64,000 bases of DNA, from NCBI GenBank assembly GCA_017945845.1, contig CP072828.1, positions 1,358,408 to 1,422,407 of the forward strand, read 5' to 3'. This document shows positions 44,505 through 45,265 of the stretch, one piece after another. The position numbers and the translations under genes were made by a program. Below the pieces are notes generated by a model that was given only the letters and a program-made list of their open reading frames with translations, ran no database searches and was not told the origin of the DNA. The DNA comes from Carnobacteriaceae bacterium zg-C25 (GTDB lineage: Bacteria > Bacillota > Bacilli > Lactobacillales > Aerococcaceae). How positions within the stretch are numbered: the first letter of the stretch is position 1; the number at the start of each line of letters is the position of its first letter.

Positions 44505-44660
44505 AATTTACATCATTCAAATATAAAAATCACCATTCTTATATCGTGATACATTGTAAAAATTCATAAGCGTTCCCCTTTTTTTAAAAATATTTTATAT
44601 TATCCAAAATGATTATTAAATTTGCATAAACTTAAATGACGTATTGTCATGCATTATCAA
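44505..44660 (-). repeat. Duplicated leader unit, copy A
   Basis: On the minus strand GTCATTTAAGTTTATGCAAA, then AAAAGGGGAACG, the micro-ORF and ATGGTGATTT are shared in order with 45116-45265 (GTCATTTGAGTTTGTATGAA, AAAGGGGGAACG). About 150 bases, clearly diverged. Confidence 0.6.
44517..44567 (-). CDS. Micro-ORF A (16 aa), paralog of micro-ORF B
   Basis: ATG at 44567 is preceded by AAAAGGGG with a 6-base gap (AACGCTT region). It encodes MNFYNVSRYKNGDFYI. Micro-ORF B at 45134-45181 encodes MLFYNISRYRNGDLQ. Eight or more aligned residues are identical and the others conservative (V/I, K/R, F/L), while codons differ at silent positions (TAC/TAT, CGA/CGT). This pattern indicates that both are, or recently were, translated. 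Confidence 0.6.
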   Translation of the reverse strand: MNFYNVSRYKNGDFYI

Positions 44661-44670
44661 ATATACCAGA

Positions 44671-45087
44671 TTACCACTTACAAATTCCCCAACGATTACA
44701 TTCAGTAGGAATGGATTTTACAAAACAAAATACTCCTGAGAAAGGCTTAAATACTCGCTTCTTCCCTTTTTCACCTCTCAAACCTTCTGTACCTTGCAAG
44801 ATTCCCCTATAATATAATACATATCCTGTTCCATATTTTTTGACATCAACGAACTTTTTTGTAAGCGTCATATTAGGTATCCAGCCTAATAATAAAATGT
44901 TAGGCTTAATTGCATCCGTATACTGACCATCAACTTCATCAACGTATATCGTGCCAATTACCGTTATATTAGGATGTATGTCTTTCCTTCTATCTAAAAA
45001 TTCAGCGTCTACCTTTGACGGACAAAACAATAGAATTGACGATAAAAATAGAATACCCAACATGACTTTACTAACTACTTTTTTCAT
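44671..45087 (-). CDS. Small secreted protein of unknown function
   Basis: A 138-residue protein. The signal peptide is KKVVSKVMLGILFLSSILLF ending in CPSKVDA; the mature part is ~110 residues, basic, with a beta-rich look (ITVIGTIYVDEVDG, VLYYRGILQGTEG) and three Cys near the C-terminus (VFCFVKSIPTECNRWGICKW), possibly disulphide-bonded. Start chosen at 45087; an in-frame upstream extension overlaps micro-ORF B in another frame. It is the second half of the duplicated micro-ORF unit. I do not recognise the family; a bacteriocin-like or toxin-like secreted protein is possible but unsupported. Confidence 0.6.
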   Translation of the reverse strand: MKKVVSKVMLGILFLSSILLFCPSKVDAEFLDRRKDIHPNITVIGTIYVDEVDGQYTDAIKPNILLLGWIPNMTLTKKFVDVKKYGTGYVLYYRGILQGTEGLRGEKGKKRVFKPFSGVFCFVKSIPTECNRWGICKW

Positions 45088-45115
45088 TTTTCTGCCTACT
45101 TTCTTTCTGCGATTT

Positions 45116-45265
45116 TTTACAATCCACATCACTTCATTGTAAATCACCATTACGATAACGTGATATATTATAAAAAAGCATACACGTTCCCCCTTTTAAA
45201 CCCGTTTATGCGATTTATTTTTAAAATTCATACAAACTCAAATGACACGCTTCATAGGTTATTAA
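45116..45265 (-). repeat. Duplicated leader unit, copy B
   Basis: Matches copy A at 44505-44660 block by block. It carries micro-ORF B and its AAAGGGGG ribosome site. Confidence 0.6.
45134..45181 (-). CDS. Micro-ORF B (15 aa), paralog of micro-ORF A
   Basis: ATG at 45181 with AAAGGGGG seven bases upstream. It encodes MLFYNISRYRNGDLQ, matching micro-ORF A (MNFYNVSRYKNGDFYI) from residue 3 to 13 with only conservative changes. It ends 46 bases before the secreted protein gene. Confidence 0.6.
   Translation of the reverse strand: MLFYNISRYRNGDLQ

What the first reader, a model, noticed from the sequence alone, without database searches (positions are those of the whole stretch)
44517..45181. 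Two paralogous 15-16-residue micro-ORFs, each with a strong ribosome site, ahead of small membrane/secreted proteins
MNFYNVSRYKNGDFYI (44517-44567) and MLFYNISRYRNGDLQ (45134-45181) share the pattern F-Y-N-[VI]-S-R-Y-[KR]-N-G-D-[FL]. Silent codon differences (TAC/TAT, CGA/CGT) and conservative replacements (V/I, K/R) suggest selection on the peptide. Each has AAAGGGG-class ribosome sites, better than those of the downstream genes, and sits 41-46 bases upstream of an orphan membrane or secreted protein. They could be leader peptides for translational control, signalling peptides, or parts of a small peptide system that annotation pipelines skip.
Basis: partly seen in the sequence, partly recalled or inferred. 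Interest (0 to 1): 0.75.

Follow-up and report, generated by a model that had tools for sequence, protein, structure and literature searches.

The report
Duplicated translated leader before orphan genes
In a Granulicatella-like bacterium, one stretch of DNA carrying a 15-16-codon mini reading frame occurs twice, once just before each of two unrelated genes that matched no other protein searched, and the mini reading frames likely act as translated switches for those genes rather than as free-standing peptides.

Summary
Both micro-ORFs exist on the minus strand at the stated coordinates, 41 and 46 bases before the next gene. Their likeness is homology (81% over 57 nt, E 9.5e-9). But the duplicated unit is larger than the peptide: it runs from an upstream palindrome through Shine-Dalgarno, micro-ORF and the bases after its stop to about 10-14 nt before two unrelated genes. 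Each micro-ORF is the 5' arm of a predicted hairpin (z -2.7, -3.6). Peptide similarity scores exceed a neutral simulation (P 0.002-0.011); plain identity does not clearly do so (P 0.05-0.08), and changes fall 3/2/4 on codon positions, so peptide selection has modest support. No other copy was found: two in this genome, no exact peptide-pattern match in genome or viral contigs, and both downstream proteins matched only themselves. Best reading: a lineage-specific translated leader acting in cis on two orphan genes. Classic erm-type attenuation is not supported: downstream ribosome sites are not specially hidden and no terminator lies between. Both peptides carry R-Y-[K/R], which fits the macrolide arrest motif +X+; this is the boldest open reading.

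The parts
45083..45265 (-). Leader copy 2, homologous to leader copy 1 from the palindrome to about 14 nt before the gene start
   Evidence: Alignment A2; blastn 81% over 57 nt, E 9.5e-9
44470..44665 (-). Leader copy 1
   Evidence: Alignment A2
45242..45255 (-). Palindrome-like element ATGA-N6-TCAT of copy 2; operator role inferred
   Evidence: By eye; the half-site GTCATTTRAGTTTR has 2 exact places in the genome; all places up to 1 mismatch (8) are at the level of the reversed-pattern control (7)
44636..44650 (-). Palindrome ATGAC-N5-GTCAT of copy 1; operator role inferred
   Evidence: By eye
45205..45210 (-). -10-like hexamer of copy 2 (CATAAA), about 39 nt after the palindrome centre; weak
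   Evidence: By eye only; the promoter scan does not list it
44599..44604 (-). -10-like hexamer of copy 1 (GATAAT), about 39 nt after the palindrome centre; weak
   Evidence: By eye only; the promoter scan lists an overlapping 9-of-12 site at 44619-44592, and promoter-like sites in the region are at chance level (8 against 8.6)
45185..45196 (-). Shine-Dalgarno block AAAGGGGGAACG of micro-ORF 2
   Evidence: -11.3 kcal/mol with the anti-SD
44571..44582 (-). Shine-Dalgarno block AAAAGGGGAACG of micro-ORF 1
   Evidence: -8.4 kcal/mol
45134..45181 (-). Micro-ORF 2, MLFYNISRYRNGDLQ
44517..44567 (-). Micro-ORF 1, MNFYNVSRYKNGDFYI
45108..45180 (-). Predicted hairpin 2: 5' arm is micro-ORF 2, 3' arm its end and the bases after its stop; base 20 nt before the gene start
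   Evidence: MFE -19.7, z -3.6, 1 of 1000 shuffles as good
44501..44566 (-). Predicted hairpin 1, same layout in another register; base 25 nt before the gene start
   Evidence: MFE -14.7, z -2.7, 16 of 1000 shuffles as good
44671..45087 (-). Orphan gene P138, likely secreted (signal peptide by eye), 3 Cys outside it; a start at 45150 would give 159 aa but has hardly any Shine-Dalgarno site (-2.5)
   Evidence: Only itself found; no Pfam match up to E 1 and no NCBIfam match; coding frame favoured
44269..44475 (-). Orphan gene P68, small protein with one transmembrane stretch by eye
   Evidence: Only itself found; no Pfam match up to E 1, NCBIfam matches far below cut-off; coding frame favoured

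Best explanation
The two micro-ORFs are homologous parts of one duplicated upstream region that stands before two unrelated orphan genes, and they likely work in cis as translated leader elements: a ribosome that starts at the micro-ORF would open the predicted hairpin that the micro-ORF forms with the bases behind its stop, and so would set how much of the downstream gene is made. Shown: the ORFs, their start sites, the homology over the whole leader, its fading 10-14 nt before the gene start. Predicted: the hairpin. Inferred: that the leader is transcribed with the gene, that the micro-ORFs are translated, that the leader is under selection, the direction of the effect, and that a shared regulator acts at the upstream palindrome.
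For: The homologous block runs from the palindrome to 10-14 nt before the gene start (identity 68% palindrome region, 46% spacer behind it, 82% Shine-Dalgarno and spacer, 78% first 37 nt of the ORF, 66% for 32 nt after the stop, 47% for the last 15 columns). The proteins behind it share nothing. Shine-Dalgarno and ATG are kept in both copies. The micro-ORF frame is the one that keeps similarity: BLOSUM score 60 in frame 0 against 28 and 24 in the other frames; in neutral simulations that score is reached in 0.2-1.1% of stop-free cases, and 35-47% of simulated copies gain a stop. The micro-ORF region folds better than shuffles in both copies (z -2.7, -3.6), and the hairpin is better than expected after 22 random substitutions (P 0.07 in one direction, 0.004 in the other).
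Against: Only two sequences exist, so every selection test is weak; plain residue identity is not significant (P 0.055 and 0.085). The folded segment was chosen after first seeing the folds, and whole leaders fold less strikingly (z -1.8 and -2.4; -1.7 and -2.2). The two hairpins pair in different registers, and the RNAalifold consensus of A2 does not contain them: it pairs four bases of the micro-ORF within the micro-ORF and the bases after the stop with the palindrome region. The downstream Shine-Dalgarno sites are not unusually hidden (free 0.50 and 0.76; shuffle means 0.50 and 0.66), and model ribosomes on the micro-ORF leave them at 0.41-0.52 and 0.77-0.85. Codon usage of the micro-ORFs does not stand out (0.39 and 0.07 of shuffles score as well).
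Confidence: 0.5

Rival explanations
1. By-product of a duplication: promoter, leader and gene were duplicated, the genes then diverged or were replaced, and the micro-ORFs are passive leftovers that have not yet decayed.
For: Two copies only, side by side, seen in one genome; substitutions fall 3/2/4 on codon positions and residue identity is within neutral range (P 0.055, 0.085); a copy with 9 substitutions stays free of stops in about half to two thirds of simulated cases.
Against: Peptide similarity score exceeds the neutral simulation (P 0.002-0.011); Shine-Dalgarno block and ATG are better kept than the 5' spacer (82% against 46%).
Confidence: 0.25
2. The micro-ORFs make functional peptides that act in trans (signal, regulator or modulator), and the downstream genes are co-expressed partners.
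For: In-frame peptide similarity; own Shine-Dalgarno sites.
Against: No export signal or hydrophobic stretch by eye; Rgg C-terminal family not found in the genome; TPR regulator of a congener has no relative here; homology extends past the stop to 10-14 nt before the gene start, which a free-standing peptide gene would not need (inference).
Confidence: 0.13
3. Drug- or stall-sensing leader: ribosomes arrest at the conserved R-Y-[K/R] (codons 8-10), which fits the +X+ arrest motif of macrolides and ketolides, and so switch on the downstream genes under translation stress.
For: Codon 8 differs silently (CGA/CGT) and codon 10 differs at all three bases (AAG/CGT) yet stays basic. The tlrB (yxjB) leader of B. 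subtilis, MIIQFIRYR, stalls at RYR with tylosin (PMC6851288, outline and passages); +X+ motifs are the main ketolide arrest sites (PMC8298421, passages). The toiL leader of a toxin-antitoxin operon senses antibiotics before genes that are not resistance genes (PMC12121999, outline and abstract).
Against: No predicted structure that hides the downstream Shine-Dalgarno until a ribosome comes, no terminator in the leader, no recognisable resistance gene downstream; in the tlrB leader erythromycin does not stall at RYR, so the triplet alone is not enough; a +X+ triplet is expected by chance in roughly one 15-residue peptide in six (own estimate, no call).
Confidence: 0.12

Closest known systems
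Bacterial regulatory uORFs / leader peptides with translation attenuation (ermCL, ermDL, tlrB leader MIIQFIRYR, toiL)
   Same: Short ORF with its own Shine-Dalgarno site ahead of the main gene, hairpin-forming leader (here predicted), basic-X-basic triplet as in tlrB and ermDL
   Different: Downstream genes are orphans with no sign of a resistance function; their Shine-Dalgarno sites are not hidden by the predicted fold; no terminator; the triplet lies in mid-peptide, not at the end as in tlrB
Leader genes that raise expression by reinitiation (PMC4833913)
   Same: Short unannotated-type ORF closely ahead of a structural gene
   Different: Distances of 41 and 46 nt; the paper reports a weak Firmicutes peak at 15-16 bp and about 12 nt covered downstream by a ribosome as the limit for reinitiation (part 1 of 3 of the text read)
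Rgg/SHP and ComRS pheromone genes of streptococci (architecture recalled; papers seen as listing only)
   Same: Micro-ORF with good Shine-Dalgarno site as first ORF behind a palindrome-bearing promoter region
   Different: Peptides hydrophilic; Rgg C-terminal family not found in the genome

Membership tests
Translated regulatory uORF (leader peptide) | Short ORF with Shine-Dalgarno site, start and stop upstream of a gene | tested here: met
Translated regulatory uORF (leader peptide) | Conservation of the uORF across homologous leaders | tested here: inconclusive
   Only two paralogues; similarity P 0.002-0.011, identity P 0.055 and 0.085
Translated regulatory uORF (leader peptide) | Translation and effect on the main gene | not testable with these tools
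   Needs ribosome profiling or reporters
erm/tlrB-type translation attenuator | Leader fold hides the Shine-Dalgarno site of the main gene and a ribosome on the leader frees it | tested here: not met
   Site free 0.50 and 0.76, not lower than in shuffles (88 of 200 and 148 of 200 at or below), little change with model ribosomes; static folds only
erm/tlrB-type translation attenuator | Arrest motif in the leader peptide (R/K-X-R/K) | tested here: met
   R-Y-K and R-Y-R at codons 8-10; arrest itself untested
erm/tlrB-type translation attenuator | Antibiotic-resistance gene downstream | tested here: not met
   P68 and P138: no Pfam match up to E 1, no NCBIfam match over its cut-off; only themselves found
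Transcription attenuator | Intrinsic terminator between leader ORF and gene | tested here: not met
   The one terminator-like site in 43900-45600 lies at 44007-43970, outside the leaders
Rgg/SHP quorum sensing | Rgg-type receptor gene in the genome | tested here: not met
   TIGR01716: 0 of 1 genome; of 14 control genomes the search rings in Lactococcus lactis only
Known RNA leader (Rfam) | Match to a covariance model | tested here: not met
   0 matches up to E 1 in 44240-45460
Reinitiation leader gene | Stop-to-start distance of about 10-16 nt | tested here: not met
   41 and 46 nt

The most novel reading that the evidence does not exclude
A duplicated ribosome-stress sensor: one translated leader with a conserved R-Y-[K/R] arrest triplet stands before two unrelated, one-of-a-kind surface genes (one secreted, one membrane), so that macrolide-like drugs or other stalls of the ribosome switch on a private pair of genes that are not resistance genes.
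Probability: 0.1. Interest if true: 0.65.

Novelty: new member of a known kind. Interest (0 to 1): 0.32.

Why it matters
If the leader works as proposed, it would be a translated leader that serves two unrelated genes as a unit, with homology fading just before the gene start: a natural example of a swappable control cassette. It also gives a test bed for whether micro-ORFs seen only in one lineage are functional or just remnants of duplication, a common open question for the small ORFs that annotation skips.

Tried and rejected
Relatives by DNA: the locus against 41 genomes: all 41 have short matches at E<=1, the best outside the own genome E 6.0e-5; not followed except L010. Leader 1 against 395 genomes of the order: 99 of 395 (own included) have a match at E<=0.01, the best outside the own genome E 2.9e-5 over 33 nt. 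I followed one, L010 of the same genus, because it covers the micro-ORF: it lies antisense inside a 630-aa open frame and does not align with the Shine-Dalgarno block. The others were not inspected.

Relatives by profile: a sequence profile of both leaders over 76 family genomes (stricter filters) gives matches at E<=1 in 43 of 76; the two own copies stand at E about 1e-42, the next at 21 bits (E 4.2e-4). I inspected four weaker places: L133 (antisense inside a 541-aa frame), the third own match (inside a 746-aa frame), L138 (the L010 place again) and L134 (loose alignment that overlaps the end of a 109-aa frame). The rest were not inspected.

Exact peptide pattern: 0 places in genome contigs and viral contigs; as the window itself holds the pattern, its own species is evidently not among the records searched. 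Plasmids and phages by blastn: none. P138 and P68 by tblastn in 14 loci of relatives: no match. More promoter copies: control level.

Frameshift fusion of micro-ORF 2 into the 159-aa frame of P138: rejected because in copy 1 that frame closes after seven codons (read) and the start at 45150 has hardly any Shine-Dalgarno site (-2.5). P138 structure: mean pLDDT 41.5, unusable, no fold search made. The RlmA/TlrB zinc ribbon as a yardstick: not found in the three genomes of the genus, found in 5 of the 9 genomes searched.

Full report
What is there. The window is the last 64 kb of a single-contig 1.42 Mb genome. Its GltX is 79% identical to that of Granulicatella sp. WM01 and 70% to that of G. elegans, so the organism is Granulicatella-like; no name was given. 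Between an acyl-ACP thioesterase gene (45449-46186) and a T-box leader (43995-44241) ahead of an ABC-transporter ATPase gene that I take for metN (42889-43938) lies a 1-kb, 29% G+C segment (window 36%), all on the minus strand: leader 2, gene P138, leader 1, gene P68. In WM01 the thioesterase gene (ends L044 10318) is followed by a T-box (10853-11108) and the ABC gene (from 11154), without P138 or P68.

The micro-ORFs. A pattern with up to 3 mismatches finds exactly these two places in the genome, and blastn of leader 1 finds leader 2 at E 9.5e-9. Their start sites are sound but not exceptional: -8.4 and -11.3 kcal/mol against the anti-SD, ranks 22 and 9 of 38 starts, each about 2 kcal/mol better than that of the gene behind it. 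Six intergenic micro-ORFs of 8-30 codons with such sites occur in the window against 1.6 expected from shuffles, so it is the pair that is unusual, not each alone.

The repeated unit is the leader. In alignment A2 identity is 68% over the palindrome region, 46% over the spacer behind it, 82% over Shine-Dalgarno and spacer, 78% over the first 37 nt of the ORF, 66% for 32 nt after the stop and 47% for the last 15 columns before the gene start. The proteins behind show no local alignment. By eye, both leaders carry a small palindrome (44636-44650, 45242-45255) about 39 nt before a -10-like hexamer; its half-site is exact at only these two places in the genome, while the one-mismatch places are at control level. 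No regulator was identified.

Peptide or RNA? Nine of 42 aligned nucleotides differ, 3/2/4 by codon position; residue identity is within the neutral range (P 0.055, 0.085). Only the micro-ORF frame keeps high similarity (BLOSUM 60 against 28 and 24), and random placing of nine substitutions reaches that score in 0.2-1.1% of stop-free cases. On the other side, the same 75 nt fold better than shuffles (z -2.7 with 16 of 1000; z -3.6 with 1 of 1000), with the micro-ORF as 5' arm and the bases after the stop in the 3' arm, and the fold survives divergence better than neutral in one direction (P 0.004) and marginally in the other (P 0.07). The whole leaders fold less strikingly (z -1.7 to -2.4), the two copies pair in different registers, and the RNAalifold consensus of A2 does not contain this hairpin. 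The fold is therefore a prediction. With two sequences the two constraints cannot be told apart; both would fit a leader that acts in cis.

Mechanism. Inferred: ribosomes entering at the micro-ORF open the hairpin whose base ends 20 or 25 nt before the gene's start codon. The simple erm scheme does not fit: the downstream Shine-Dalgarno sites are as free as in shuffled leaders and stay so when model ribosomes are placed on the micro-ORF, and no terminator lies between. Reinitiation is unlikely at 41 and 46 nt, going by the distances in PMC4833913 (part 1 of 3 of the text). A notable detail is R-Y-K / R-Y-R at codons 8-10: codon 8 changed silently and codon 10 at all three bases, yet both stay basic. 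This fits the +X+ arrest motif (PMC8298421, passages) and resembles the tlrB leader MIIQFIRYR, which stalls with tylosin though not with erythromycin (PMC6851288, outline and passages). A uORF that senses antibiotics before a toxin-antitoxin operon is described in PMC12121999 (outline and abstract). It stays a rival here, since the downstream genes look like nothing known and the fold does not hide their start sites.

Orphans. P138 (likely secreted) and P68 (one transmembrane stretch) match only themselves in a database of 5.8 billion proteins; each cluster has one member sequence on three contigs. No Pfam match up to E 1, no PADLOC match up to E 0.1. NCBIfam gives nothing for P138 and four matches far below cut-off for P68 (best E 0.0013); PHROGs gives weak matches to families of unknown function (best E 0.0055 and 0.17). 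Both have a coding signal in the right frame. A single-sequence model of P138 is unusable (mean pLDDT 41.5).

Distribution. No convincing relative of the leader among 395 genomes of the order by blastn or 76 family genomes by profile, where I inspected only the places named under Tried and rejected; none by exact peptide pattern in genome contigs (one genome for each of 84,980 species) or viral contigs. The patterns are exact and records very near the window can be left out, so strains of the same species are not excluded.

Literature. The searches showed no paper on this locus among the rows listed (8-12 per search); the lists were read as listings only, apart from the papers named above and uORF4u (PMC10219788, passages), whose comparative method needs homologues that this locus lacks.

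Verdict. A real, duplicated, probably translated leader of a known general kind, seen in one lineage only, before two orphan genes. Modest interest now; the arrest-motif reading would raise it.

Noticed in passing
window 38226-39843, minus strand: An AbiEi/AbiEii pair (type IV toxin-antitoxin, abortive infection; PADLOC E 9e-59 and 9e-97), also low in G+C (0.28), 4.4 kb from the orphan genes.
   Followed up: partly
L044 10666-10719 (Granulicatella sp. WM01): At the syntenic place, between the thioesterase gene and the T-box, WM01 has a different micro-ORF, hydrophobic (MEFIFIIFLIVSIILLA), with a GGAGG site (read by eye).
   Followed up: no
window 44253-44282, minus strand: An 11-of-12 promoter-like site (TTGACA-N18-TATACT), placed to serve the T-box leader, overlaps the last codons of P68.
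   Followed up: no
window 38098-38157 and 63728-63790, minus strand: Two more intergenic micro-ORFs with good Shine-Dalgarno sites (MRTNDFYNLLEMDWLVMKV and MNEKNLSTKKTSSSKSSRFP, both -11.2 kcal/mol).
   Followed up: no
L133 410-1264 (G002, same genus): A helix-turn-helix protein with a TPR-like C-terminal part (PlcR/ComR-like by eye) that has no relative in the window's genome.
   Followed up: partly
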